Of a DNA stretch of 64,000 nucleotides, positions 1,287-61,100 are shown piece after piece. The DNA comes from Maylandia zebra. Taxonomy: Eukaryota; Chordata; Actinopteri; Cichliformes; Cichlidae. The stretch spans positions 17,717,378-17,781,377 of the forward strand of contig NC_135174.1 of assembly GCF_041146795.1 (NCBI RefSeq). The letters run 5' to 3'. Numbering within the stretch: the first letter of the stretch is position 1; each line of letters begins with the position of its first letter. The notes below the pieces were generated by a model. It did no database searches and was not told the DNA's origin. It saw only the letters and a program-made list of their open reading frames with translations. The position numbers and the translations under genes were made by a program.

Positions 1287-1802
1287 GTTTCAAGCAACAA
1301 CCAGCTAGCTCGGTAAAGCAGCGAGGAGATTCATACCGCGGATTTCGACACAATAGCAAAAAATGTTATCGACTATAAGGGTTCTAAAAGAGTTTCAGTT
1401 TCAATTATCCGAATTAAATACCCTCTAAAATAGGGTTCTTATTTTTTTCAGCCTTCAAATCAAACAATTGGCTAAATTAATCGTTTAAAACGTGTAGAAA
1501 GTGTTGTTGTCCCTTCCTAGTTGTTTTTACTCCATTCATTGTAGCATAGTGGCGGTAAGTCCTGCTGTTGACATGTTATTAAACGGTGTGTCAAGAAGGA
1601 AAATTTCTCCATTTCGTTGTTAAATAATGAGGTTGAACTGTTTATCAGTAACAAATATCCGCAGTGTATTATATAATATATAAGGAAGTTGTCAGTAGCC
1701 GTTAACTTGCTGTGATCGCGGAATGTTACCAAACATCAGTCCTTGTGTAATAACAATGGTTCCGAGGTAACGTCGGGCACGTTACGCTTTATTTTGCTCC
1801 AA
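1287..1802. promoter_or_regulatory. Head-to-head promoter interval NHLRC2/DCLRE1A
   Basis: The start codons of NHLRC2 (minus, 1286) and DCLRE1A (plus, 1803) are only 516 bp apart and point away from each other, so both promoters and 5' UTRs must lie here unless there are distant non-coding exons. I see no convincing TATA box at a useful position. An in-frame upstream ATG at 1743 would add 20 residues to DCLRE1A. The bidirectional-promoter reading is inference from spacing. Confidence 0.55.
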
Positions 1803-4800
1803 ATGTCACAGAAGGAAAATGAAAATGACATCTGGGACTATAAACCTCTTGGCAAGAAAAAGAAGAGGCACGAATCGCCACCTAAAAACACTAAAAGAAA
1901 ATGCACTTTCAGGAAATCCTCCAAGAAAGACGCATCTTCTCTCTCAATCAAGCCACAAGACAGGAACGCAAAAGCCAAAGCGGCAGAAAGTGAAGTCAGT
2001 GCTACAGCTGGAATAACAGACGACTGTAACTTAAGCTTAAATGCACAGGAGCTTAACTCAAAGAGATCTCCCACAAAAGAAACAAATCAAAGTGACAATG
2101 CTGCAGCCGAGGGCCCATCCCCTGAAGACTTCTGCCCCATCTGTCAGATGCCATTCTTCATTTTGGTTGTGCAGTCCCAAAGATGGCACGTTGCTGAATG
2201 TATTGACACTCCCAGGGATACGTGCACAGGTACAGACGTCCATACTCATCACACATCTTAAAGTTACACTTGATACCAAATCACAGCTTCAGATAAGCCT
2301 AATGTCATTCACAGCAGCCATTCAGGTCCATAATAATCCAAACCATCTCAGCTTTTCCTCAATCCCAGTGAATGTATGTTCACAGGTGACGCTGTGATCT
2401 GCAGTGAGAATAGGCAGCAGCCTGGAGAGGCAGAAAGGAAATGGAAGCAGGTTGGAGACAAAGATAGAGAGGCGAGGCTGAGATGTTTTGGGCATAGTGG
2501 GATAGGGATGGACAAAGAATTCTGTGCAATGTATCCATTGCCAGGGAAAATGAAAAGTGCAAGATCATAGAGAAGATAAATGGATGTAGTCAAGGAGGAC
2601 ATGCAGAGTAGTGTGACAGAAGGGGAAGCTCGGGATAGGGATGGAGGTTGATCTCCTGTGGCGACTCCCACAAGGAACAGCTGGAAGAAGATATGGCATA
2701 CGGACATATCTATGATAATTCAAACTTTTGAGAGAAAAAAATTAAATAAGAGGACCAGAAGTCCACAGGATAAACAAGTCTCCTCTAACAAAAGGTCCTT
2801 CATTTCCCATAATGCATTGTGATGGTATCCTTCATGCTTGTTGGATGGTAGAAAGAAACCTTCTACATAGCCTAACAGCTCAGGATTAAGGATTAAAAGA
2901 AATGTGCACTGACAGTGTAGCACTGATTCTATGCACTTAGCTCAGTTGTGTTTATCTCAAACAGCAGGCTGATAAGATACCTTTATAGTATATATCATCA
3001 GTTTAGTTTAGAGTAGAGTAGCGCAGTTGGTAAAGTGCTAAATATTATCCTCTTGTAACCCTGCTCTAACGAGTGCAGGCACTGTTCATTTATCTGTTCA
3101 TACAGAATGTCCAGATGGTCTTCGGTGCTCCTCCACCATTCCGAACCATTACAAGAAATTCAACCACACACTTCTGGCCCACAGTCGAGCCAGCAGCGGC
3201 ACAGCCCTCCTCAGTCTGTCCCAACAGGCTGAGACCAGCCTGGATTGTTTTCCAGGGCTGATAAAAAATCAGGGGTCTATTTTAGAGACTTCACAGCAAG
3301 GGGCTCTAACTCCTCCTGCATTATCCAGTCCTAGCTCCTCACCTCACCAACGTCACACCGGAACACTTCAGTCAAAACTTACAAATGGCCTTCTGCTCCT
3401 GCGTTCTCCTGGACCGGAGGACTTTAAGAAAAAGAAAGGCTGGTCATCATCTACTAAAAGCCAAAACTCTGTCACTGTTTCTCAGGAAAGTAATAAAGGG
3501 GATTTATCCATCCCTGTCATGGAAAATAGTGGACAGCAGGATAGTGAAGATTTACACAGAAGTGAGGATTCTTTGGAAAATGATAACATGATATCCTACT
3601 CTCCTCTTTCTGAGTTCCCTGCAGAGACTGAAATCAATACTACAGAGTGTAGAAAATCTCTTTTTAATGACAGTGCAATTCAAAATGAGCATGAAGACTC
3701 GATGATGCTGTTCAGTGACTGCTTCTCCAGTGAAGATGAGCTCCTCACTGACTTTATAAACAGCAATTCAGAAGCCAGCAATGTGCAAGGAAAGAAACTG
3801 CCTTCTGCAAACACCCAGCTGGGTGCAGTTTCCTCATTAACACCCACTAATCAGTTAACTGCTGAGAACAGAGCTGCTTCCTCAGGTGGAAAAGAAGCTT
3901 CTGAAATCAGTAAGACTAGTATTCAGTCTCCACAGAGTATTGTCTTAGAGCGTCTGAGAGACACTCTTCTGAGCTCAGATAACTCACACTCCCAAAACTC
4001 AAACAGCATTATTCAAACAGAGCAACCAGCTTCTCTTCAAGTGCCTTCATCTCAAACTTCCATTGTCCAACGATCTCAAGCCATGCCCCCTCAGAAGGGC
4101 CACAGCAAAGCCGGTCAGGTCTCCGGTCTCAAACAAACTGACATCGGGGTGTTTTTTGGCCTCAAACCACTGAGGGAGAAGGAGAAAGAAGCAGAGAGTG
4201 CACCAAATGACCTCAACGCTTCGTCTACTCCAACGGCTGGGAAGAGCTCGGGACAGAGACGGCAAAGAGGAGACCGGCAGAGAAAAAATAAAGCTGACAC
4301 ACCTGCAGATACGCCACAGGCCACAGAAACCATTAACCCATCAGTAGATGGACAGGGAGAAGTCTGGGGGAGGAGTGGGACCACAGGGAGGAGGAGGTGG
4401 AGGAACAGAGTCAATGCTGATGGAGAAGTACAGCTGCCCCGTTGCCCTTTCTATAAGAAAATCCCAGGTTAGTAAGCAAATGTACATTTCTTCTTGCTGT
4501 GTAAATTTAAACATTAATTATTATTTAATTTGTAATCTTATGCAAAAAACTTTCCCCAGGCACAAAGTTTGCCATTGATGCCTTTAGATATGGACAGATC
4601 GAGGGCATCGCAGCCTACTTCCTTACTCACTTCCACTCAGACCACTACGGAGGCTTGACCAAGACTTCCACTGTTCCCATCTACTGCAACAGAGTAAGTC
4701 AATCTGTAGTTTTGATGAAATAATTTACTTAGTTTTGTTTTTATTTGGTACTGGATCACCGAGTGCCAGGGACAGTTCACCCTTAAATCACATTTACATG

Positions 4801-26485: not shown

Positions 26486-27113
26486 TAAGAAAAGATAAGA
26501 TAAACCTTTATTAGTCCCACACGTGGGAAATTTTTGGTACACGAACAGTGAAAACTTAAGAGAAAGAAGAGAAAAACAATAGAATAGAATGAGATAAACA
26601 TGTGCCATTGCACATCAAGGAGAAAGGGAGGCAGTTACAAATGTGTATGGGATGTGTGTGTGTGTGTCTGTCTGCACATCTGTGGGCCTCTGCAGACACC
26701 ATGTTGTAGAGTCTGACAGCAGTGGGGAGGAAAGGCCTGCGAAATCTCTCCGTCCCACATCGTGGGTGCTGCAGCCTGCCACTGAAAGAGCTGCTCAGTG
26801 CTGTCACAGTCTCCTGGACGGGGTGGGAGATGTTCTCCAGCAGGGATGACAGCTTAGTCACCATTCTCCTGTCACTCCCCACCTCCACTGGGTCCAGAGG
26901 GCATCCTAGAACAGAGCTGGCCCATCGGATCAGCCTGTTCAATCTCATTCTGTCCCCTGCAGAGATGCTGCCGCCCCAGCAGACCACACTGTAAAAAATG
27001 TCAGAGGCCACCACAGAGTCATAGAAGGTCTTTAGGAGTGGGCCGTTCACTCCAAACGACCTAAGCCTCCACAGCAGGTACAGCCTGCTCTGTCCTTTCC
27101 TGTCCCCAACCCC
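26486..27113 (-). mobile_element. 5'-truncated L2-clade LINE
   Basis: The minus strand encodes the C-terminal end of an L2-type reverse transcriptase ORF without interruption over roughly 27050-26700. It runs LLKTFYDSVVASDIFYSVV, then CWGGS, RLNRLIRWASSV, CGTERFRRPF and a closing YNM. Downstream is a 3' UTR with a (GT/CA) stretch, ending in a short AAGATAAGATAAA-type 3' tail at 26486-26510. The intact reading frame makes this one of the younger repeats in the window. The 5' end is missing, as is usual for LINE copies. Confidence 0.85.
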
Positions 27114-27479
27114 CGGGCTATGGACTAGTACCGGTAGTGAGTCGTTTGCTTTGTTTACTTTGTTGATACAGCACCGCAGCCCTGATTACAAGCAAGTCTA
27201 TGTTAGTATGAAGTAATTTTTAAAGCATTTCTGTTTTAGATTTACTGCACATGTTGTTTACCATCATTCACGTGTATGCATACCAGAGCTTACATATCTT
27301 TAGAGTTAAATAAGCTTTGGTATGTATAACCAGTATGTGATGTAATAGGATTATTGAAACAACAATTAAACAATTAGTGCAACAATTTATCGAAACATGC
27401 AAACATACATGGTAAAATTAAGTCGGCAAAGGAAAAGTGGAAGTTTGTTCAACTCTAATAAGCTTGAAAGTCAATATTT

Positions 27480-31036: not shown

Positions 31037-34000
31037 TCAGTTGAAATACAGTTCTTTTGTCAGCATAGAGACCACACAGGGAATCTGCTTCTTCTCACTG
31101 AAGCGGCGGTCTTCAGACCAGGACTCAAAGCTGGTGGCCACCATGTAATTGACCCGTGTCAGGATCTGCATTATCTCCAGCTGTTTTCCAAACTCGTTCA
31201 GGACGTTGCAGAGCGCCTGTACAAACCAGGAGCCACGCCCAGGATTCCTCCATGAGTAATATCCTGGAAAATAAGCATCATTAGTGAGCAATGAAACTAG
31301 AAATCAGTCAAACTAAACTCTTCAGGAAATGCTTCTCCACTTATATATATACCAATTGTATTTTACTGTAAGGAAAAATATGTTGTTTAAACTGGGATTT
31401 CAGGTTTACCTGGTACAGTGGAGTAGGCAAAGAGGAAATCAGCCTCTACGGGGATCTTATGTCTTGGATTTGCATCTGTCTCCAGGGCATCATTTGGTGG
31501 ACCTGAATCTGTCTGTATACCATCATCAAATTCTGAACCCCTACAAGCCTGGTGAAGTAAATGAAATGACATTTCATTGTGATCCTGAGTAGTTTTCTCA
31601 TCGATGACCTGGTGAAGCAATTCAAAATTAACTGTTTTTAAAAGCTGAGATAAGCCAAATTCACCTATTTCCACAGCAAAGAACTGTTCAAACTGCCCAT
31701 TTGGGTGAAAAGTAGCAAATAGAAGTTCACACAAATCTGTAACTTAACACTGCTATTGTTACAATAAAAGACTTTAGTCACACAATCAAGTATGAACCAT
31801 GCACACCTGGATGAAGAAGAGTTTTGGCTTTCCCACTAAGCTTTTGCACTTGTCCCCCCTGAACAGCGAGGTCATCGTTTTGATGGGCATGGCTCCGTCT
31901 GTGCCGTAGATCATTCCTTCCTCGCCGTGGCTCAGCAGGATGCAGGCGAAACACGAGCTGTCACTGTGGTCTTCTTCCGAGGCTGAACCACACACACAAA
32001 CAAACAAACACTGAACTCCTAGCTCGACTCAGGCCTTGTTAAACCTGTCTAGATCAATGAATAAAGTCAGTCCCTAATAGTTACGTCTGAAGTTTATTTA
32101 GCGTGAATTTGAGATTTCAGCTAAGTTATATATTTAACTGATAAAGAATGATTTATAATGCAGCCCATCAAAATATTTAATATGCCAGTGAGCCCTTTGT
32201 TATAAGAAGAAATTTATCAGCATCACTGACATGACAGGTTCATATAGTCTTATGATCATAAAACCTGGTTATTGGACTTCCAGTTACTTTGATTAGAGAC
32301 ACATCTGGCTAAATTTAGTAGTAGGATGTGTTACTTTTATACCAGTGGTGGTTGTTAAGAAACAAGAATTATTAATTTAAACTTGCACATCTTGGTCATT
32401 TTACAACAGGGATGTCTAACATAAGGCAGAATCAGGCCAAGGAAGACTTTAATGGTAGGACTGTGCGATATGACCAAAAATCTCATATCCCAATATAAGA
32501 CATTTATCGTCCTGACAACGATATATATCAGAAAAATGTTACATTTTCTGTAAATTATGTGAATCTCAGGCAACTCAGCTTACGTGAAGTGTTTTCAGCT
32601 GGGTGTCGTGTAACTGGAGTCGAGTGTTTTGACCAATGCATGAAACTATACATTTTTAGGCATTTTCTTTATGAGTATTTATTACACGGCGTGCTGCTGA
32701 GAAAAGCCTGTTTTAACGTTTAAGTCCAAGGTTTATTTTGAGCACCTGACATAAACGTTCTCCGTACTCTTTCACATGATTCTAGCATAGGAGGTAGAAG
32801 AGCCTTGTTTGAGTGTGAGGTGGGGACTGGTTTCCTGTATAATTTGCATAGTACAGTTTTCTGGTCCGTGTCAGACTTTTCATAACCAAACCATGTCCAT
32901 GCAACAGAGGTGGCCCCTCGTTTAAAAATAAGTTCCTCACTTTGTTTTGACAGGTCCTTTAGTTTGTCATCATTTCAGTTTATTTTGAAAAATCTCAACA
33001 GGATCTTCAGCTTTATTGTGAAAGGTTTATGTGGAAAATAAACAAAGGATGGTGGCGCCACACGTTGCTAATGACAACGCGTAAAAATAGTGGCTTGTCC
33101 ATCCGTAGTGTGGTTATTTTAAATATAAGAGAAAGTGAGAACTTTAGGAAATTAATAAAACCACTACAGTGACCATCAAAACGATGAAAAAATATTGCCG
33201 TAAACGGTTTATTTTGCGACACCACAAAACAAACGATAGCGTAAAATGAAACGATAGACATTTTCATATCGTCATCCGATATCATTATATTGAACAGCTC
33301 TACTGGATGGCTTTGAAAAATGTGAAGGAGAGCACAAGTTTTGTACTTTTTACAGGTTTTCCTACTGATAGAGATCTCCCTATCACCATTCATATTTCAC
33401 TTAAGTAAGTAAATAATAGATTTCTGTAATTTTACACATTTGCTTCTTACAATTTAAGACTCATACTGACACATTTCTTTCATCTACTAAAGCAGCATTT
33501 CTTTGTCATGTTGAAAAACATACACGCAATGTTGAACTTGTGCTCATTTTTCTAATATAAAAATATCTAAGTGACTAAATGTGTAGTTAAATATCTGTAC
33601 AATGACAGAGAAGGAAGTTTCATTTCGCGGGCCCACAAAAGATCAAAGAGGGTGTATATGACCAAAGGCCTCCCTGTTTTACACATTAAAAGGCACCAGA
33701 TTACTAGTATATAACTATATGTAACTAAATAATACCCTTTGTGCTGCTAACCCTTCCGTCAACTACAGTGGCTTACAAAAGAAAATATATGCCTACATTT
33801 GGATCTAAATATTAAATATGAAACACCATCACAACAAAAAGAAAAATGTAAAAAAAAAAGAGAAAAGTCTCGTTATCTATATGACATGACTTACCCTCTC
33901 GGAGAAGACGCTCCATCTTCTCACATGTCTGATCGTTGTAAAGAATGACATCAAAGCCCAGGTTCTTGAAGCACTTGTAAAGCTCGCCTGCGTCTCGATC

Positions 34001-49124: not shown

Positions 49125-52100
49125 CACAAACAAACTGTATTTTATCTTCTTAAAAGCAGTTTGATTCTGTGACCTGGTTCGACATAGTGTTGTTCTCAGA
49201 AAGCGGAATCTATTTAAGCCAATTTCTTATATTCAGCTGAACTTATTTAGTGTCTCCATATGGTACAAAATCAAGCTGGTTAGCCAGTTATTCAGTCCAA
49301 TAATTTAAAATTATCAAAATTAGATTTGCTTTTAAAAATCCACATGACGTGATATAATGCACTTTAAGTCTTTTGAAATAGCAGCTCACGCACCGTTCAA
49401 CGTGAAATTGTCTTTCACGCTTAATTTGTCTCACAAATTGTCTCTAGTCTGTCTCACGCAGCCCTCACAGTTTTCTGTGTTTTCACCTGAAGGTGAAAGC
49501 AATTTAACGAGTTTCTCAATATGTGCGTGTGAGGTGCTGATATGATTTTTTTCCTCATGCATTTGTCTTTGCAGAAAGTGTACAAGAGCAACTGGGAGAA
49601 GCAGAGGGAAAAGGGCTTTGAGCTCCGTTTGGACTCCCTATCTATACTCACAGCAAGAGCCAAGAGAGACCTGGCTAGTGATGTGAGTTTCTATTCTCTT
49701 TTACTCTGAAATTTGCAATAACCTTAGGTTAGGTTGAGTTGCAGCATTTTGAAATCATTGGATTCTTTAAGAAGTAGCATTTAGCATCTTGAACCATTTA
49801 TTTCTTGTCTTTTTGCAGGTGAAATACAAAGAGACGTATGAGAAAAACAAAGGCAAGATGATTGGCATTAAAGCGGTCAGTGAGGATTCTCAGATGGCTC
49901 ACTCCACTCTGGCCACCAAACTACAGAGTGATCGCCACTACAAAAAGAACTACGAGGACACTAAGACCAAATACAGGTGAGGCCAAGCTTAGTTCTTTAC
50001 ACCCAGATGCATCTGGTACTAGAGATAAAGTAAAGGGAGTCATTTATAGTTGGGTATAGTTTCTTAAATCTGTGTTGCATGGTCTTCTTCAATTAATTGG
50101 TAATAAGTGAAGCAATTCATTTTGCATTTTCTGAGTTAGCGAGGTCATTTAGCCCTAATATTCTTGTCTTTATACCTCAGAGGGTAATGATGCATGTGTT
50201 ATAGCATTTCAGTAACTCTAAAAATGAGATAAAGAGCTTATATCATTTATCAGATATCAGTTGAAGAGGAAAACTACTGACAGAAGCTTTTAGATTATTA
50301 CAAACATTATTAGCAGATTCCTTAGCAATATCCTGCTTTCTTTTCATACCAGCAGCAATTTAGAAAGTTTTACAGGACATTTCATTTCAAAAGGTCAAAC
50401 AAGCTCTGATAAAGACTGCATGAGCCATCACCCCAGATAAAGTCAAAGTAAAATGAAGTGTATTATCCTTCTTTTTAAGTAGACCCCAATCAGCAAAGAG
50501 CTGAACTCAACTCAACAATAACTGACCTTTCATTTTCTGCAGTTTTGGAACAAAGCTCCTCATTGAAACTAATCTTCATTTCCAGTGTTTCCCTGGATAT
50601 GCTGAACATCAGCCATGCCAAGAAGGCTCAAGACCTGGCAACTGAGACCAATTATAGGACTATACTCCATGAATACACTACTCTGCCAACTGACATTAAT
50701 GTTGCCTGGGCGAAGAAGGCTTATGGACTACAAAGCGATGTAAATCTTACTTTTAGGCACTGGAATGACCAATCATTTCATGCAAAAGTACTGCAGAATT
50801 TGATACTGATATGTGCGCACGTCTGTTTTCAGAAACAGTATAGGTCAGATTTGAACTGGATGAAGGGCGTTGGCTGGGAGGCCTCGAAATCTCTGGATGT
50901 CCTGCAAGCAAAGAAAGCTGGGGAGCTGGTCAGCGAGGTAATGTTTAATACTATGACTGACAAGGCATTGCTCCGAGTAGCTATAAAACAATCACTGTTA
51001 AATGTTATTAATATTTCCCCCTTTTTTTTTTAGTAAAAATGAGGCAAAAGTATTCTTTTTTTAGATCAGTCTCAATCTTCTTAGTGTTCAGTTTGGTTAG
51101 AGAGTTATATCACAGAAACTTCCAAGGTTTAAAATCATATCTGTTTATATATTTTTCAATTCAAGTTGAAGTTCATACTTTAAAATATGAGGAAATCTGA
51201 TTTTACATGTTAAAAAACATAAAACTATAAAGCTCATCCAACATATTCAGGCATTCTTTCAACTATGAGAAAACTTGCTCCTTCAGGCCTATGGGCTAAA
51301 TTTCCATTCAGAAGCCCAAAACTATCAGGCTTCTGCTCTGTGGAACCAGGTCTCACTTTGAGTACAAGAGACATATAATTTGACATTATGTAATTTAGCA
51401 TTTCTTGTTGCCCGAACTGATAAGTTCAGGTGGATTTCATCTTAATTTGATAGCTACAGGGGTGGATTTTTAATTCGATTCAGGGCGTATAAGTCCCTGC
51501 TTCCTATAATTTCCACATGCATAATGGGTGTTCTAATCGAATGAACCAGCTCTTATGTTGAACTCAGGAGAGAGGTCTCTGGTTCGAGTCCGGATACCCC
51601 CTACTTAGCAAACATTCTTGACTGTCATGCATCTTAGTGCTTTCAGACACAATCCGAATCAAAGCCTTAGCTATTACGGTTCTTTTAAAACATTCCTAGA
51701 AATGGGGGTAGAGCTCAGTGGCAGAGCATTTGACTGCAGATCAAGAGGTCTCTGGTTCAAGTCCAGATACCCCCTACTTAGCAAACATTCTTGACTGTCA
51801 TACATCTTAGTGTTTTCAGACACAATCCGAATCAAAGCCTTAGCTATTATGGTTCTTTTAAAACATTCCTAGAAATGGGGGTATAGCTCAGTGGCAGAGC
51901 ATTTGACTGCAGATCAAGAGGTCTCTGGTTCAAGTCCGGATGCCCCCTACTTAGCAAAATTTCTTTGAAGCCCTGACTTTGCGTTCAGAAAAATCTAAAT
52001 CTTTAAAATTTCCATTTCTAACGTTTAATTTCATGAAAGCTTTGTCAGGTTCATTGTGCAGGGGTATTGGGGGTATAGCTCAGTGGCAGAGCATTTGACT

Positions 52101-55100
52101 GCAGATCAAGAGGTCTCTGGTTCAAGGCTGGATACCCACTACTTAGCAAACATTCTTGACTGTCATGCATCTTAGTGTTTTCAGACACAATCCGAGTCAA
52201 AGCCTTAGCTATTAGGGTTCTTTTAAAGCATTCCAAAAAATGGGGGTATAGCTCAGTGGCAGAGCATTTGACTGCAGATCAAGAGGTCTCTGGTTCAATT
52301 CCGGATACCCCCTACTTAGCAAACATTCTTGACTGTCATGCATCTTAGTGTTTTCAGACATAATCCGAGTCAAAGCCTTAGCTATTAGGGTTCTTTTAAA
52401 GCATTAGGAGGAATGGGGGTATAGCTCAGTGGCAGAGCATTTGACTGCAGATCAAGAGGTCTCTGGTTCAAGTCCGTATGCCCCCTACTTAGCAAGCGTT
52501 CATGAATGTCATGTATATTCAGACACAGTCAAAGCCTTTCCTGTCAGGGTTCTTATAGAGCATTTGACCCCAGATCAAGAGGTCTCTGGTTCAAGTCCTG
52601 ATACCCCCTACTTAGCAAGCATTCTTCACTGTCATGTATATTCAGACACAATCCGAGTCAAAGCCTTTCCTATCAGGTTTCTTATAGAGCATTTGACACC
52701 AGATCAAGAGGTCTTGGGTTCAAGTCCGTATGTCCCCTACTTAGCAAGCGTTCATGAATGTCATGTATATTCAGACAAAATCCAAGTCAAATCCTCTCCT
52801 ATCAGGGTTCTTAAACAGCATTTGACACCAGGTCAAGAGGTCTTTGGTTCAAGTCGGGATGTCCCCTTACTAAGCAAATTTTCTTTGCAGCCCTGACTTT
52901 ACATTCAGAAAAAACTAAATCTTTAAAATTTCCCTTTTGTCCATTTCTTCCGTTTAATTTCATGAAAGCTTTGTCAGGTTCTCATGTCAGGGGTAATGGG
53001 GGTATAGCTCAGTAGCAGAGCATTTGACTGCAGTTCAACAGGTCTCTGGTTCAAGTCCGGATGCCCCCTACTTAGCAAACATTCTTGACTGTCATGCATC
53101 TTAGTGTTTTCAGACAAAATCCGAGTCAAAGCCTTAGCTATTAGGGTTCTTTTAAAGCATTCCGAGAAAAGGGGGTATATCTCAGTGGCAGAGCATTTGA
53201 CTGCAGATCAAGAGGCTTCTGGTTCAAGTCCGGATACCCTCTCCTTAGCAAACGTTCTTGAATGTCATGCATCTGAGCTTTTTCAGACACAATCCGAGTC
53301 AAAGCCTTTCCTATCAGGGTTCTTATAGAGCATTTGACCCCAGATCAAGAGGTCTTGGGTTCAAGTCGGGATGCCCCCTACTTAGCAAACTTTCTTTGCA
53401 TGCCTGACTTTGCATTCAGAAAAATCTAAATCTTTAAAATTTCCCTTTTGTCCATTTCTAACGTATAATTTCATGAAAACATTGTCAGGTTCATTGGGTA
53501 TGGGTAATGGGGGTATAGCTCAGTGGCAGAGCATTTGACTGCAGTTCAAGAGGTCTCTGGTTCAAGTCCGGATACCCCCTACTTAGCAAACATTCTTGAC
53601 TGTCATCCATCTTAGTGTTTTCAGACACAATCCGAATCAAAGCCTTAGCTATTAGGGTTCTTTTAAAGCATTTTGAGAAATGGGGGTATAGCTCAGTGGC
53701 AGAGCATTTGACCCCAGATCAAGAGGTCTCTGGTTCAAGTCCTGATACCCCCTACTTAGCAAGCATTCTTGACTGTCATGTATATTCAGACACAATCCGA
53801 GTCAAAGCCTTTCCTATCAGGTTTCTTATAGAGCATTTGACACCAGATCAAGAGGTCTTGGGTTCAAGTCCGTATGTCCCCTACTTAGCAAGCGTTCATG
53901 AATGTCATGTATATTCAGACAAAATCCAAGTCAAATCCTCTCCTATCAGGGTTCTTAAACAGCATTTGACACCAGGTCAAGAGGTCTTTGGTTCAAGTCG
54001 GGATGTCCCCTTACTAAGCAAATTTTCTTTGCAGCCCTGACTTTACATTCAGAAAAAACTAAATCTTTAAAATTTCCCTTTTGTCCATTTCTTCCGTTTA
54101 ATTTCATGAAAGCTTTGTCAGGTTCTCATGTCAGGGGTAATGGGGGTATAGCTCAGTAGCAGAGCATTTGACTGCAGTTCAACAGGTCTCTGGTTCAAGT
54201 CCGGATGCCCCCTACTTAGCAAACATTCTTGACTGTCATGCATCTTAGTGTTTTCAGACAAAATCCGAGTGAAAGCCTTAGCTATTTGGGTTCTTTTAGA
54301 GCATTAGGAGAAATGGGGGTATAGCTCAGTGGCAGAGCATTTGACTGCAGTTCAAGAGGTCTCTGGTTCAAGTCCAGATACCCCCTACTTAGCAAGCGTT
54401 CATGAATGTCATGTATATTCAGACACAGTCAAAGCCTTTCCTGTCAGGGTTCTTATAGAGCATTTGACCCCAGATCAAGAGGTCTCTGGTTCAAGTCCTG
54501 ATCCCCCCTACTTAGCAAGCATTCTTCACTGTCATGTATATTCAGACACAATCCGAGTCAAAGCCTTTCCTATCAGGGTTCTTATAGAGCATTTGACACC
54601 AGATCAAGAGGTCTTGGGTTCAAGTCCGGATATCCCCTACTTAGCAAACGTTCTTGAATGTCATGCATCTGAGCTTTTTCAGACACAATCTGAGTCAAAG
54701 CCTTTTCTATCAGGGTTCTTATAGAGCATTTGACCCCAGATCAAGAGGTCTTGGGTTCAAGTCGGGATGCCCCCTACTTAGCAAACTTTCTTTGCATGCC
54801 TGACTTTGCATTCAAAAAAATCTAAATCTTTAAAATTTCCCTTTTGTCCATTTCTAACGTATAATTTCATGAAAACTTTGTCAGGTTCATTGGGCATAGG
54901 TATTGGGGGTATAGCTCAGTGGCAGAGCATTTGACTGCAGTTCAAGAGGTCTCTGGTTCAAGTCCGGATACCCCCTACTTAGCAAACAGTCTTGACTGTC
55001 ATGCATCTTAGTGTTTTCAGACACAATCCGAATCAAAGCCTTAGCTATTAGGGTTCTTTTAAAGCATTCCGAGAAATGGGGGTATAGCTCAGTGGCAGAG

Positions 55101-58100
55101 CATTTGACTGCAGATCAAGAGGTCTCTGGTTCAAGTCCGGATACCCCCTACTTAGCAAACATTCTTGATTGTCATGCATCTTAGTGTTTTCAGACACAAT
55201 CCGAGTGAAAGCCTTTCCTATTTGGGTTCTTTTAGAGCATTAGGAGAAATGGGGGTATACCTCAGTGGCAGAGCATTTGACTGCAGTTCAAGAGGTCTCT
55301 GGTTCAAGTCCGGATACCCCCTACTTAGCAAGCGTTCATGAATGTCATGTATATTCAGACACAGTCAAAGCCTTTCCTGTCAGGGTTCTTATAGAGCATT
55401 TGACCCCAGATCAAGAGGTCTCTGGTTCTAGTCCTGATCCCCCCTACTTAGCAAGCATTCTTCACTGTCATGTATATTCAGACACAATCTGAGTCAAAGC
55501 CTTTCCTATCAGGGTTCTTATAGAGCATTTGACACCAGATCAAGAGGTCTTGGGTTCAAGTCCGGATATCCCCTACTTAGCAAACGTTCTTGAATGTCAT
55601 GCATCTGAGCTTTTTCAGACACAATCTGAGTCAAAGCCTTTTCTATCAGGGTTCTTATAGAGCATTTGACCCCAGATCAAGAGGTCTTGGGTTCAAATCG
55701 GGATGCCCCCTACTTAGCAAACTTTCTTTGCATGCCTGACTTTGCATTCAGAAAAATCTAAATCTTTAAAATTTCCCTTTTGTCCATTTCTAACGTATAA
55801 TTTCATGAAAACTTTGTCAGGTTCATTGGGCATAGGTATTGGGGGTATACCTCAGTGGCAGAGCATTTGACTGCAGATCAAGAGGTCTCTGGTTCAAGTC
55901 CGGATACCCCCTACTTAGCAAACATTCTTGACTGTCATGCATCTTAGTGTTTTCAGACACAATCCGAGTCAAAGCCTTAGCTATTTGGGTTCTTTTAAAG
56001 CATTAGGAGCAATGGGGGTATAGCTCAGTAGCAGAGCATTTGACTGCAGATCAAGAGGTCTCTGGTTCAAGTCCGGATGCCCCCTACTTAGCAAGCGTTC
56101 TTGACTGTCATGTATATTCAGACACAATCCGAGTCAAAGCCTTTCCTATCAGGGTTCTTATAGAGCATTTGACACCAGATCAAAAGGGTCTTTGGTTCAA
56201 GTCCGGATACCCCCTACTTAGCAAACATTCTTTGAAGGCCTGACTTTGCGTTCAGAAAAATCTAAACCTTTAAAATTTCCCTTTTGTCCATTTCTAACGT
56301 TTAATTTCATGAAAGCTTTGTCAGGTTAATTGTGTAGGGGTATTGGGGGTATAGCTCAGTGGCAGAGCATTTGACTGCAGTTCAAGAGGTCTCTGGTTCA
56401 AGTCCAGATACCCCCTACTTAGCAAACATTCTTGACTGTATATTTAGACACAATCCAAGTAAAAGGCTTTCCTGTCAGGGTTCTTCTAGATCATTTCAGT
56501 CAAAACCTTTCCTATCAGGGTTCTTCTAGAGCATTTAACCCCAGATCAAGAGGTCTTGGGTTCAAGTCGGGATGCTCCGTACTTAGCAAACTTTCTTCGC
56601 ATGCCTGACTTTGCATTCAGAAAAATCTAAATCTTTAATATTTCCCTTTTGTCCATTTCTAACGTATAATTTCATGAAAGCTTTGTCAGGTTCACATGTC
56701 ACGGGTAATTGGGGTATAGCTCAGTGGCAGAGCATTTGACTGCAGATCAAAATGCTCTGATCAAGAGGTCTCTACTTGATCAGAGCATTTCCTGATAGGA
56801 AAGGCTTTGACTCGGATTGTGTCTGAAAAAGCTAAGATGCATGACATTCAAGAACGTTTGCTAAGGAGAGGGTATCCGGACGTGAACCAGAGGCCTCTTG
56901 ATCTGCAGTCAAATGCTCTGCCACTGAGCTATACCCCCATTACCCCTGACATGTGAACCTGACAAAGATTTCATGAAATTAAACGGAAGAAATGGACAAA
57001 AGGGAAATTTTAAAGATTTAGTTTTTTCTGAATGCAAAGTCAGGGCTGCAAAGAAAATTTGCTTAGTAGGGGGCATCCCAACTTGAACCAAAGACCTCTT
57101 GATCTGGGTTCAAATGATCTAGAAGGACCCTGACAGGAAAGGCTTTGACTTGGATTTTGTCTGAATATACATGACGTTCATGAACGCTTGCTAAGTAGGG
57201 GGCATCCGGACTTGAACCAGAGACCTCTTGAACTGCAGTCAAATGCTCTGCCACTGAGCTATACCCCCATTTCTCTTAATGCTTTAAAAGAACCCTAAAA
57301 TCTAAAGCTTTGACTCGGATTGTGTCTGAAAACACTAAGATGCATGACAGTCAAGAATGTTTGCTAAGTAGGGGATATCCGGACTTGAACCAGAGACCTC
57401 TTGAACTGCAGTCAAATGCTCTAGAACAGGGGTGCCCAATCCCGGTCCTCGAGAGCTACCGTCCTGCAGCTTTTAGATGCATCCCTACTCCAACACAGCT
57501 GAATCAAATGGTTTGATCTCTACAGCATGCCATCATGTTTGGCAAAGGCCTGATAACAAGCCATTCATTTGATTCAGGTGTGTGGGAACAAGGATGCATC
57601 TAAAAGCTGCGGGACGGTAGCTCTCGAGGACCAGGATTGGGCACCCCTGCTCTAGAAGAACCCTGATAGGAAAGACTTTGACTGTGTCTGAATATACGAC
57701 AGTCATGAATGCTTGCTAAGTAGGGGGCATCCAGACTTGAACCAGAGACCTCTTGATCTGCAGTCAAATGCTCTGCCACTGAGCTATACCCCCATTACCC
57801 CTGCACAATGAACCTGACAAAGCTTTCATGAAATTAAACGGAAGAAATGGACAAAAGGGAAATATTAAACATTTAGTTTTTTCTGAATGCAACGTTAGGG
57901 CTGCAAAGAATGTTTGCTAAGTAGAGACCTCTTGATCAGTGCAGGGGTATTGGGGGTATAGCTCAGTTGCAGAGCATTTGACTGCAGTTCAAGAGGTCTC
58001 TGGTTCAAGTCTGGATACCCCCTACTTAGCAAACATTCTTGACTGTCATGCATCTTAGTGTTTTCAGACACAATCCGAGTCAAAGCCTTAGCTATTAGGG

Positions 58101-61100
58101 TTCTTTTAGAGTATTAGGAGTAACTGGGATATAGCTCAGTGGCAGAGCATTTGACTGCAGATCAAGAGGTCTCTGGTTCAAGTCCGGATGCCCCCTACTT
58201 ACCTGACTTTGCATTCAGAAAAATGTAGATATTAAATATTTCCCTTTTGTCCATTTCTAACATTTAATTTCATGAAAGCTTTGTCAGGTTCATTGGGAAG
58301 GGGTATTGGGGGTATATCTCAGTGGCAGCGCATTTGACTGCAGATCAAAAGGTCTTTTGTTCAAGTCAGGATGCTCCCTACTTAACAAACGCTCTTTGCA
58401 TGCCTGCCTTTTCATTCAGATAAATCTAAATCTTTAATATTTCCCTTTTGTCCATTTCTAACGTATAATTTCACAGAAATTTGACTGCAGTTCAAGAGGT
58501 CTCGGATTCAAGTCGGGATACCCCCTACTTTGTAAGCGTTCTTGGGTCTCGTGCATCTTAGAATTTCCTGACACAATCCGAGTCAAAACCTTAGTTGTCA
58601 GGGCTTTTTCCAGGCCTGACTTTGAATTCAGTAAAACACTGTTCCTTAATTTTTCACCTTTGTTCATTTCTAAACTATATTTTCATACAAATGTTGTCCT
58701 ATCCTTTGACTCTCCTCGTTCTTAGTATTTCCTGACACAATCCGAGTCAAAGCGTTAACTATCAGGGCTTTTTCCTGGCCTGATTTTGCATTCAGATAAA
58801 CGCAGTTCCTTAGTATTTCACCTTTGTTCATTTCTAAACTATATTTTCATACAAATGTTGTCCTATCCTTTGACTCTCCTTGTTCTTAGTGTTTCCTGAC
58901 ACAATCCGAGTCAAAGCCTTTGCTATCAGGGTTCTTCGAGAGCATTTGACCCCAGATCAAGAGGTCTTGGGTTCAAGTCGGGATTCCTCCTACTTAGCAA
59001 ACATTCTTGATAAATTCTTTTGGCCATTTTCTTGTACCTACATTTTCCAGAAGCCCATCCTGTAAAGAATCTGATATCTCAGAAGTCACTTCTTTTTATC
59101 TGGTGCAGTCTTTTTTGTAATGTTCTGCATATGATACACGAGGCTGGAATCTACATGCACTATTCTTAATCTCATCATGAGCAGCCACTTATTTGTCATT
59201 CCACTCATGTTACCACCATTAGTTTATGAAACAGAACAGATCTTGGAGCCCGTCCTGAGCAAGCATTTTTCTGTATACTGTTTGTGAACATGTGGTTATG
59301 TATCTATCTAACAAAGTCTCCTTTTGTTTTTCCATCTTTTTGATTTTTTTAGGTACTTTATTTTTTAGGATCCATCCCACATAGCAGAAAAGTCTGGTCT
59401 GGATCTGGTGTCAAGCCGGCACAGCTGGCTGACTTCTGGCATGGCAAGTGATATGTCATCCAGATATGTGCCAGGCCTGATGTAGATGGCACTGTTTATG
59501 CGATGGCATGCCACATCTGGCCCTATTATGTTTTGGTTTATGTGGCCCAGGCTCATACAAAACAGGTCTGGCCCAGATCCGGCATCAAGCTGGCACTTCT
59601 GACTGACTGGTGTCATGGCGGGGTGTATATCAACCAGATGTGGGGCAGGTCTGGCAATGATGGCACTATTTATGTTACCATTTTCCTGTTTTAGTTAGAA
59701 GACCCAAATGCCATGTTGCGATACTATACTGCTATGGTAGCCAACGTTTCAATTGCAGGTTTGACAGGTTTGTGATGTACACTTTATCCTAAACCTAGTG
59801 AGGGTTTAGTCATGTTTACCACTGGGTGGCTGAAGCTCAGGAGGTAGAGCAGGTCACCTACTGATCAGAGGGTAAGTGATTCGAGTCCTGCCTCCAGTCT
59901 GCATGTCAAGAGTTAGAATATAGTTAGGAAGCACCCAGTTTAGACAAAGTGTGTGAATGTGGCATGTTGTACAGAGCACTTTGAGTAATCTGGATGACTA
60001 GAAAGGCATTATATAAGAATCAGTCCATTCTCTGTCTGAACAGAGTTTTGTCTTGCTAGTTTTCCACTATTATGTTCCAGTACATGTTGTTATTACATGG
60101 CTTGATTAAGGTACACATTAGGCTGACATCTGGGGCCAGAGTTCAAAATGTTCTGGGCCAGCACAGGGCCAGCAGTGTGTCTGCAACTGGCCCATGTGTG
60201 AGCCACCTCTGGCAAACCAGATCGGGGCCATCATTCTTTTCGGTATGTGGGCCATGTGTAAGCACATTGTGTGGGCCAGATCCAGGCCATACCAATTTTG
60301 CTATGTGGGATATTTATGATATAGTGTGTGCCCTCTAGTGGTCCCAACACGTATATGCATTGAGTTTTTTATGGTTGCCTCCCATTGTTACAGCCTAGTG
60401 TTCATCACTGGGGTATTTTTCTTCTCCAGAAAAAGTATCGTCAGGATGTAAGCGCTCTGAAGTTCACCAGTGTTGAAGACACTCCAGAGATGAACCAGGC
60501 CAAACTAAGCAACAAACTTGCAATTGATGTAAGTTCAGCTGACATTTGTAGCCTCAGCCATATGTTATTATTGCGTGATATAGCATACAACAAACATGTT
60601 GTTACCTAGCTTGTTGAGTTTTTTTGGCCCACTTGACATATGCCACAAAAACCACTGTAGCACCTAGAAGTTCACCAGATTGAGTTATTTTAAGGCTTGT
60701 TTCATTGCGGTAAACTGATCTTTAGTGCTGTTTTTTCTTCTTTACAGAGGTTGTACAGGGAGAAGGGTGAAAACATGAAGCACAACTACACACTGAGTGG
60801 AGAGTTACCCGAGTTGGTGCAAGCCAAGCTGAATGCCATGAATATCAGTGAGGTAAAACCATACATAGGCACATTTAGTCAGTCAAAAAGTTCTTCTCTG
60901 CGGCAGGTTTTATATAATGTTTTCGCGGTGAAACTGAGTTTGTCCATCCGACACATTTCAGACGCAATACAAGGAATCTTGGAAGAAGATACGTGATGGC
61001 GGTTACAAGCTGCGTCTGGATGCCATTCCTTTCCAATCTGCCAAAGCATCTGCAGAGATCCTCAGTGATGTGAGAATCCATTTCATCATATGAAACCACA

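What the first reader, a model, noticed from the sequence alone, without database searches (positions are those of the whole stretch)
51573..58991. Large tandem tRNA-Cys(GCA) array inside an intron of a muscle gene
Twenty-three full-length tRNA-Cys genes (nine with no damaging change that I can see) sit in one 7.4-kb array within NRAP intron 26, mostly in the same orientation as NRAP. tRNA-Cys clusters are known in vertebrates, but a dense single-isoacceptor array inside a long protein gene raises two questions. One is whether Pol III transcription through the intron affects NRAP elongation or splicing. The other is whether the array acts as an insulator, as tRNA genes can in yeast and mammals.
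Basis: partly seen in the sequence, partly recalled or inferred. Interest (0 to 1): 0.8.

Follow-up and report, generated by a model that had tools for sequence, protein, structure and literature searches.

The report
Tandem tRNA-Cys cluster in NRAP intron
A real cluster of 23 full-length and about 20 broken copies of one transfer-RNA gene fills most of an intron of a muscle gene, apparently of a fish; it looks like an ordinary, still-churning local gene amplification, with no sign yet that it controls the muscle gene.

Summary
ARAGORN and Rfam find the same 23 full-length tRNA genes at 51704-58379 (20 on +, 3 on -): 22 Cys(GCA), one with anticodon CCA. BLAST adds 20 fragments. Nine of 23 full copies have no broken pair or changed invariant base. 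The array fills 76% of a 9,810-bp intron of a nebulin-repeat gene near CASP7, fitting NRAP; intron number and species were not checked.

It is a higher-order tandem repeat: a long spacer, full genes 173 bp apart, then truncated copies in 129-137-bp units lacking the 5' 19 bases and A box. A 36-bp deletion between AGAGCATT repeats would explain these. The CCA copy is a full/truncated hybrid. One 586-bp block recurs with 2 mismatches, so growth is recent.

Copies drift nearly neutrally: in matched units tRNA bodies are not significantly less diverse than spacers (p=0.17; weaker signs elsewhere). Nine of 23 lack a TTTT within 100 nt; only four are intact with a TTTT starting 37 nt downstream.

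Most likely this is a tDNA cluster of the kind described in teleosts, with a few live genes. Effects on NRAP, or insulation, remain untested. No vertebrate genome could be searched.

The parts
50938..60747 (+). intron of the NRAP-like gene that contains the array
   Evidence: GT donor and AG acceptor with phase-0 join restoring a nebulin-type SxxxY motif; read from sequence, no transcript
51571..58991 (.). whole tRNA-Cys-derived array, 7,421 bp, 76% of the intron
   Evidence: outermost tRNA-derived matches; fraction; TRF arrays
51877..51948 (+). intact tRNA-Cys(GCA); first TTTT 229 nt downstream
52242..52313 (+). intact tRNA-Cys(GCA) with TTTT 37 nt downstream
53509..53580 (+). intact tRNA-Cys(GCA) with TTTT 37 nt downstream
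54315..54386 (+). intact tRNA-Cys(GCA), joint best score 68.4 bits; first TTTT 288 nt downstream
54905..54976 (+). intact tRNA-Cys(GCA) with TTTT 37 nt downstream; tRNA body identical to 53509
55078..55149 (+). intact tRNA-Cys(GCA) identical to the array consensus used, TTTT 37 nt downstream
56345..56416 (+). intact tRNA-Cys(GCA), joint best score, body identical to 54315; first TTTT 230 nt downstream
57197..57268 (-). intact tRNA-Cys(GCA) in the inverted segment; first TTTT 139 nt downstream
57722..57793 (-). tRNA-Cys(GCA) passing the structural test, but with one B-box mismatch; first TTTT 116 nt downstream
53682..53753 (+). full-length hybrid with anticodon CCA: 5' part from a full copy, 3' part from a truncated copy
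   Evidence: called tRNA-Trp; ungapped, 3' part plus downstream 99.6% identical over 250 nt to truncated unit 52557 (42% to two full units, whose spacers differ in length); 5' part with upstream 93-97% identical to three full units and 27% to 52557
52557..53142 (+). 586-bp block that recurs at 53701-54286 with 2 mismatches (highest identity among long blocks found)
52557..52867 (+). run of three truncated copies (no A box, anticodon-loop changes); one of several such runs, 17 copies in all start at tRNA position 20-22
56711..57943 (.). inverted segment with 3 full and 2 truncated copies on -, between 25-nt inverted repeats (56753-56777, 57919-57943), with a 5' part copy at 56711-56759
57427..57649 (.). 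transposon-like insert with terminal inverted repeats and 8-bp duplication CTCTAGAA, inside a truncated copy
   Evidence: inverted repeat I3; flanks printed; hAT-like by recall

Best explanation
This is a tandem tRNA-Cys(GCA) gene cluster that arose by local amplification inside an NRAP intron, apparently of a fish. It grows and shuffles by unequal exchange and block duplication (the repeat structure and a hybrid copy show this; the exact exchange mechanism is inferred). Many copies are already broken (shown). A minority, the four intact copies with a nearby TTTT and perhaps five more, are probably transcribed by Pol III as ordinary, redundant tRNA-Cys genes (inferred). The truncated copies are most simply explained by a deletion between two AGAGCATT repeats, one in the spacer and one in the D arm, later multiplied by block duplication (inferred from lengths). 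The intronic site is most likely incidental, and the array is spliced out of NRAP with the intron (inferred).
For: 23 of 23 full copies score above the Rfam threshold. 9 of 23 are intact, U73 is present in 23 of 23, and the consensus cloverleaf has 21 of 21 standard pairs. The order is regular: long spacer, then full genes at 173-bp spacing, then truncated units of 129-137 bp. In 2 of 3 units examined AGAGCATT occurs twice, 36 bp apart, and 173-36=137 bp is one of the two truncated unit lengths. Block duplications: 586 bp with 2 mismatches at offset 1144, and 1,020 bp with 24 mismatches at offset 936. One clear hybrid at 53682 and one copy at 57370 with the opposite make-up. No significant constraint in the matched test: pi 0.046 in tRNA against 0.068 in spacers, p=0.17, 10 of 23 copies; 17 of 29 distinct changes damaging against 68% expected. 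Known precedent: tDNA clusters of fifty and more members in teleosts, 87% of stickleback tDNAs clustered, poor syntenic conservation of tDNAs (PMC2888827, passages).
Against: Some results hint at constraint. Of the five commonest variants in full copies, four (A37T, A66G, C61T, G62A) do not break the fold, though C61T alters a B-box base, and one (G17A) is damaging. Diversity is lower in tRNA bodies than in the long spacers (p=0.028, uncorrected, one of five tests), and truncated remnants are more diverse than the same region of full copies (0.105 against 0.061, p=0.07). Five of the nine intact copies have no TTTT within 100 nt, which fits poorly with simple Pol III genes. The deletion product made from two present-day units matches three truncated 137-bp units at only 84-88%, so the event is old or the ancestor differed. 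The precedent paper finds mostly heterogeneous pairs in zebrafish clusters and says clustering is relatively rare in three other teleosts, so a homogeneous cluster is not the rule in every fish.
Confidence: 0.78

Rival explanations
1. Host-gene coupling: Pol II traffic through NRAP represses (or licenses) the embedded, mostly same-strand tRNA-Cys genes, so that the array is off in striated muscle and on elsewhere; conversely Pol III complexes could slow NRAP transcription.
For: 20 of 23 copies are in the sense orientation of the host. In C. elegans intronic tRNA genes have lower Pol III occupancy than others, same-strand ones lower than opposite-strand ones, and the host promoter affects an intronic tRNA (PMC4999229, passages).
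Against: No clear sign of selection on the copies. Orientation follows from head-to-tail duplication of few founders, so 20 of 23 is not 20 independent events. In the C. elegans model promoter silencing also suppressed the tRNA, so the direction of the effect is not settled. No expression data here.
Confidence: 0.12
2. TFIIIC-bound insulator: full copies plus A-box-less truncated copies with B boxes act like a dense set of tRNA/ETC sites that block chromatin spread or enhancer contact.
For: Seven of 16 truncated copies examined keep a consensus B box and lack the A box. TFIIIC-only sites and tRNA genes have barrier or insulator activity in yeast and human (PMC12409998, passages).
Against: Nine of 16 truncated copies examined have one or two B-box mismatches, and distinct B-box changes in them are 4 of 24 for 11 of 53 sites (my count from the variant list), no visible protection. 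An insulator within the transcribed body of one gene has no evident target.
Confidence: 0.04
3. Intronic tRNA-like folds act on the NRAP pre-mRNA, as splicing enhancers or as RNase P/Z substrates that release tRNA from the Pol II transcript.
For: 20 of 23 full copies lie in the sense strand. tRNA-like folds of mitochondrial origin placed in introns raise splicing of reporters, depending on number and position (PMC7722341, abstract).
Against: 14 of 23 full copies are damaged. A section heading of the same paper says the mitochondrial-type copies are not processed as bona fide tRNAs in 293T cells (outline only).
Confidence: 0.03
4. Assembly artefact: copy number inflated, collapsed or misordered.
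For: One 586-bp block occurs twice with 2 mismatches and at least three pairs of full copies have identical tRNA bodies (52998/54142, 53509/54905, 54315/56345), a pattern that assemblers can mishandle; no reads were available.
Against: The full copies carry 29 distinct changes from the consensus, and unique features (transposon-like insert, inverted segment, hybrid) mark positions along the array.
Confidence: 0.03

Closest known systems
tDNA clusters of teleosts, homogeneous type (Bermudez-Santana et al. 2010, PMC2888827, passages)
   Same: tDNAs within 1000 nt of each other, one isoacceptor, mostly same direction, mixed with pseudogenes; clusters of fifty and more members are reported in teleosts.
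   Different: Sits in an intron of a long protein gene; contains a truncated type amplified along with the genes. Zebrafish clusters are mostly heterogeneous there. The passages that I saw do not treat intron location, and the text has no 'Cys'.
Intronic tRNA genes of C. elegans such as sup-7 (PMC4999229, passages)
   Same: Pol III genes inside a Pol II gene; here mostly same-strand.
   Different: There, specific pairings are conserved across Caenorhabditis species; here a large array, conservation untested.
Extra-TFIIIC (ETC) sites (review PMC12409998, passages)
   Same: The truncated copies have a B box and no A box.
   Different: B box imperfect in 9 of 16 examined; no binding data.
nimtRNAs, intronic tRNA lookalikes (PMC7722341, abstract and outline)
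   Same: Cloverleaf-forming sequences in introns.
   Different: Nuclear-type tRNA-Cys, not mitochondrial; in a dense array; no splicing data.

Membership tests
Nuclear tRNA-Cys(GCA) genes (Rfam RF00005) | cloverleaf above gathering score | tested here: met
   23 of 23 full copies, 40.7-68.4 bits against 29
Nuclear tRNA-Cys(GCA) genes (Rfam RF00005) | GCA anticodon, U73, unbroken stems and invariant bases | tested here: met
   GCA in 22 of 23 and U73 in 23 of 23; all features together in 9 of 23, not met by the other 14
Nuclear tRNA-Cys(GCA) genes (Rfam RF00005) | Pol III terminator (TTTT) close behind the gene | tested here: inconclusive
   TTTT within 48 nt in 14 of 23; first TTTT at 116-392 nt in 9 of 23. 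Of the 9 intact copies, 4 have it at 37 nt; weaker stop signals not scored
Nuclear tRNA-Cys(GCA) genes (Rfam RF00005) | transcribed and charged with cysteine | not testable with these tools
   needs tRNA-seq and charging assay
Homogeneous tDNA cluster (definition of PMC2888827) | adjacent tDNAs within 1000 nt | tested here: met
   22 of 22 gaps between adjacent full copies are under 1000 nt, largest 518 nt (from the coordinates)
Homogeneous tDNA cluster (definition of PMC2888827) | all of one isoacceptor family | tested here: inconclusive
   22 of 23 Cys; the CCA copy is a Cys-derived hybrid, so homogeneous by descent but not by the letter
ETC / TFIIIC insulator sites | B box without A box, TFIIIC bound, no Pol III | not testable with these tools
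   truncated copies: B box perfect in 7 of 16 examined; binding unknown
Conserved host-gene/tRNA pairing | same tRNA in the orthologous intron of related species | not tested
   own-genome search did not complete; no vertebrate collection on hand

The most novel reading that the evidence does not exclude
The array is a muscle-gated tRNA-Cys bank. NRAP transcription in striated muscle runs sense through the array and shuts the Pol III genes, while in other tissues they supply tRNA-Cys. Five of nine intact copies read through to distant terminators, several of them across truncated copies, and make long multi-tRNA Pol III transcripts whose processing differs from ordinary pre-tRNA.
Probability: 0.1. 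Interest if true: 0.65.

Novelty: new member of a known kind. Interest (0 to 1): 0.33.

Why it matters
A dense, almost single-isoacceptor array inside one Pol II gene, with copies that can in part be told apart, is a good natural site to test how Pol II and Pol III transcription interact in a vertebrate. It also shows, with readable breakpoints, how tRNA genes are amplified, truncated and given a new anticodon by exchange. As it stands it adds a member to a known class.

Tried and rejected
Constraint test by diversity: tRNA bodies against spacers gave no clear difference for matched units (10 of 23 copies, p=0.17). The other four comparisons gave p=0.028, 0.07, 0.11 and 0.75. All were one-sided column permutations, uncorrected, and copies are not independent because of exchange. 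Constraint test by kind of change: 17 of 29 distinct variants damaging against 68% expected, one-sided p=0.18; the 29 include three changes that the CCA hybrid took from a truncated copy. For truncated copies 16 of the 17 that start at position 20-22 were used (56162 dropped for a 1-base insertion): 15 of 24 against 65%, p=0.83.

I first guessed a 44-bp deletion for the 129-bp units; the repeats lie 36 bp apart in 2 of 3 units examined, the third having only one, which gives the 137-bp unit. The 129-bp unit needs a further 8-bp loss in the spacer, in the stretch that holds the TTTT (my reading of the two spacers printed).

Looked for a spacer word and the tRNA 5' half in viral contigs as stray fish DNA: 0 matches each. 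PDB search with a nebulin-type exon: one chance hit, E 0.5. Pfam on the frames at 3042-4469, 1716-2258 and 26559-27185: no family at 0.001. A LIM-domain pattern over the 1,210 open frames of 30 codons or more (listed) printed no hit, so the N-terminal LIM of NRAP was not found.

Literature: 'NRAP' + 'intron' + 'tRNA genes' gave 0 papers. Searches on tRNA-Cys clusters gave mitochondrial-genome papers in 8 of 10 and 12 of the 12 listed of 71. Searches on zebrafish and stickleback tRNA genes listed PMC2888827 first. So nothing in print on this array was found, of which I saw listings, plus passages of PMC2888827 and PMC11417395. Searches looked for Pol II/Pol III interplay, termination and insulation.
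Full report
What is there. ARAGORN reports 23 tRNA genes in the window, all between 51704 and 58379, none in 1-51500. Rfam's tRNA model scores the same 23 at 40.7-68.4 bits against a gathering score of 29, and adds a fragment at 56710-56760 with 31.2 bits. Twenty-two carry GCA (Cys), one (53682) carries CCA. Twenty are on +, three on -. A BLAST of the window with one copy finds 43 tRNA-derived segments: 23 full, 17 that start at tRNA position 20-22, two other 3' pieces (51571, 58479) and one 5' piece (56711). A BLAST of the array against the window gave 0 hits outside the array at E 1e-5.

Host gene. The last exon before the array ends GAG|GTAATG at 50937/50938 and the next begins after TTTACAG at 60748. 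The join is in phase and gives ELVSE|RLYREKGE, a nebulin-type motif. Two of three exons tested hit Pfam Nebulin (PF00880), one just above its cut-off. A caspase-7 exon is at 31390-31743 on -. NRAP near CASP7 is the vertebrate order as I recall it, so NRAP is the sensible name; the LIM domain and the intron number were not confirmed. The intron is 9,810 bp and the array covers 76% of it.

State of the copies. With standard pairs and the usual invariant positions as a test (positions from general knowledge of tRNA), 9 of 23 full copies are intact: 51877, 52242, 53509, 54315, 54905, 55078, 56345, 57197, 57722. The first TTTT behind the gene starts within 48 nt in 14 of 23 and at 116-392 nt in 9 of 23. 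Among the nine intact copies, four have it at 37 nt (52242, 53509, 54905, 55078) and five have none within 100 nt. TTTT is scarcer in the array than in the whole window (8.2 against 14.0 per kb). Weaker Pol III stop signals were not scored, so read-through is a possibility and not a result.

Architecture. Units follow an order: a long spacer (mostly 129-130 nt) leads into a first full gene; 101-nt spacers link further full genes (period 173); then come truncated units of 129 or 137 bp; then the long spacer starts the next cassette. The truncated units lack the first 19 bases and hence the A box, and 15 of the 16 examined carry a changed anticodon loop that reads CCA; the other (57370) keeps GCA. 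In 2 of 3 full-gene units examined the octamer AGAGCATT occurs both in the spacer and in the D arm, 36 bp apart; loss of one repeat and the stretch between gives exactly 137 bp, though the present sequences match three truncated units at only 84-88%. A further 8-bp spacer loss, in the stretch with the TTTT, would give 129 bp. This explains the truncated type by a repeat-mediated deletion; it is an inference from lengths and junction sequence.

Turnover. A 586-bp block (52557-53142) recurs 1,144 bp on with 2 mismatches, and a 1,020-bp block recurs 936 bp on with 24 mismatches. The CCA copy at 53682 is a hybrid: its 3' part and following sequence are 99.6% identical over 250 nt to truncated unit 52557, its 5' part 93-97% identical to three full copies. 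The truncated copy at 57370 has the opposite make-up: its GCA-type remnant plus 60 nt is 97.3% identical to full copies 53509 and 54905, against 66-90% to three truncated copies, behind a truncated-type upstream; a separate deletion event would explain it as well. Three full and two truncated copies are inverted, between 25-nt inverted repeats. These are marks of unequal exchange, block duplication and one inversion. The CCA copy has lost U33 and has a broken T-stem pair, and keeps U73, so it is unlikely to serve as tRNA-Trp (inference).

Selection. In the 10 full copies with a 101-nt spacer, diversity is 0.046 per site in the tRNA and 0.068 in the spacer (p=0.17). Other comparisons: long spacers 0.104 against all full tRNAs 0.057 (p=0.028); truncated remnants 0.105 against the same region in full copies 0.061 (p=0.07); short spacers against full tRNAs p=0.11; short spacers against remnants p=0.75. 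Of 29 distinct changes in full copies 17 are damaging, 68% expected (p=0.18); four of the five commonest changes are not. Together: weak or no constraint on individual copies, with intact copies perhaps favoured as templates or kept by mild selection.

What it most likely does. Ordinary Pol III tRNA-Cys genes, a few live among many failing, spliced out with the NRAP intron. Known biology makes host coupling possible: in C. elegans intronic tRNA genes, above all same-strand ones, have lower Pol III occupancy and one depends on the host promoter (PMC4999229, passages). Human tRNA genes are described as insulators, and TFIIIC-only sites as barriers (PMC12409998, passages). Intronic tRNA-like folds can help splicing (PMC7722341, abstract and outline). 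None of this was testable here.

Comparison with what is known. Passages of PMC2888827 report 65% and 87% of tDNAs in clusters in zebrafish and stickleback, clusters of fifty and more in teleosts, homogeneous clusters as a class, and poor syntenic conservation; they also report mostly heterogeneous pairs in zebrafish and little clustering in three other teleosts. Zebrafish tRNA genes are said to sit mostly in highly repetitive clusters (PMC11417395, passages). The present array is a new member of that kind. The intron site and the amplified truncated type are details I did not find described in the searches.

Noticed in passing
57427-57649: Transposon-like insert with about 91-nt inverted arms (91% complementary, duplication included) and 8-bp duplication CTCTAGAA inside a truncated tRNA copy; looks like a hAT-type non-autonomous element (family by recall).
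   Followed up: partly
56753-56777 and 57919-57943: 25-nt inverted repeats at both ends of the inverted tRNA segment, as template switching or a staggered break would leave.
   Followed up: partly
52408-52893: Stop-free frame of 162 codons through truncated tRNA units (129 bp = 43 codons, so the frame is kept); likely meaningless, but prone to be annotated as a repeat protein.
   Followed up: no
58556-58931: Tandem 164-bp repeat (2.3 copies) at the right edge, built from spacer-like sequence.
   Followed up: no
26559-27185 (-): 209-codon open frame resembling a retroelement reverse-transcriptase tail (by recall); no Pfam match at 0.001.
   Followed up: partly
1716-4469 (+): Two long open frames that I would take for DCLRE1A, which neighbours CASP7 and NRAP in vertebrates (recall); no Pfam match.
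   Followed up: partly
31390-31743 (-): Caspase-7 exon with the QACRG active-site motif (motif by recall), supporting the conserved gene order.
   Followed up: yes
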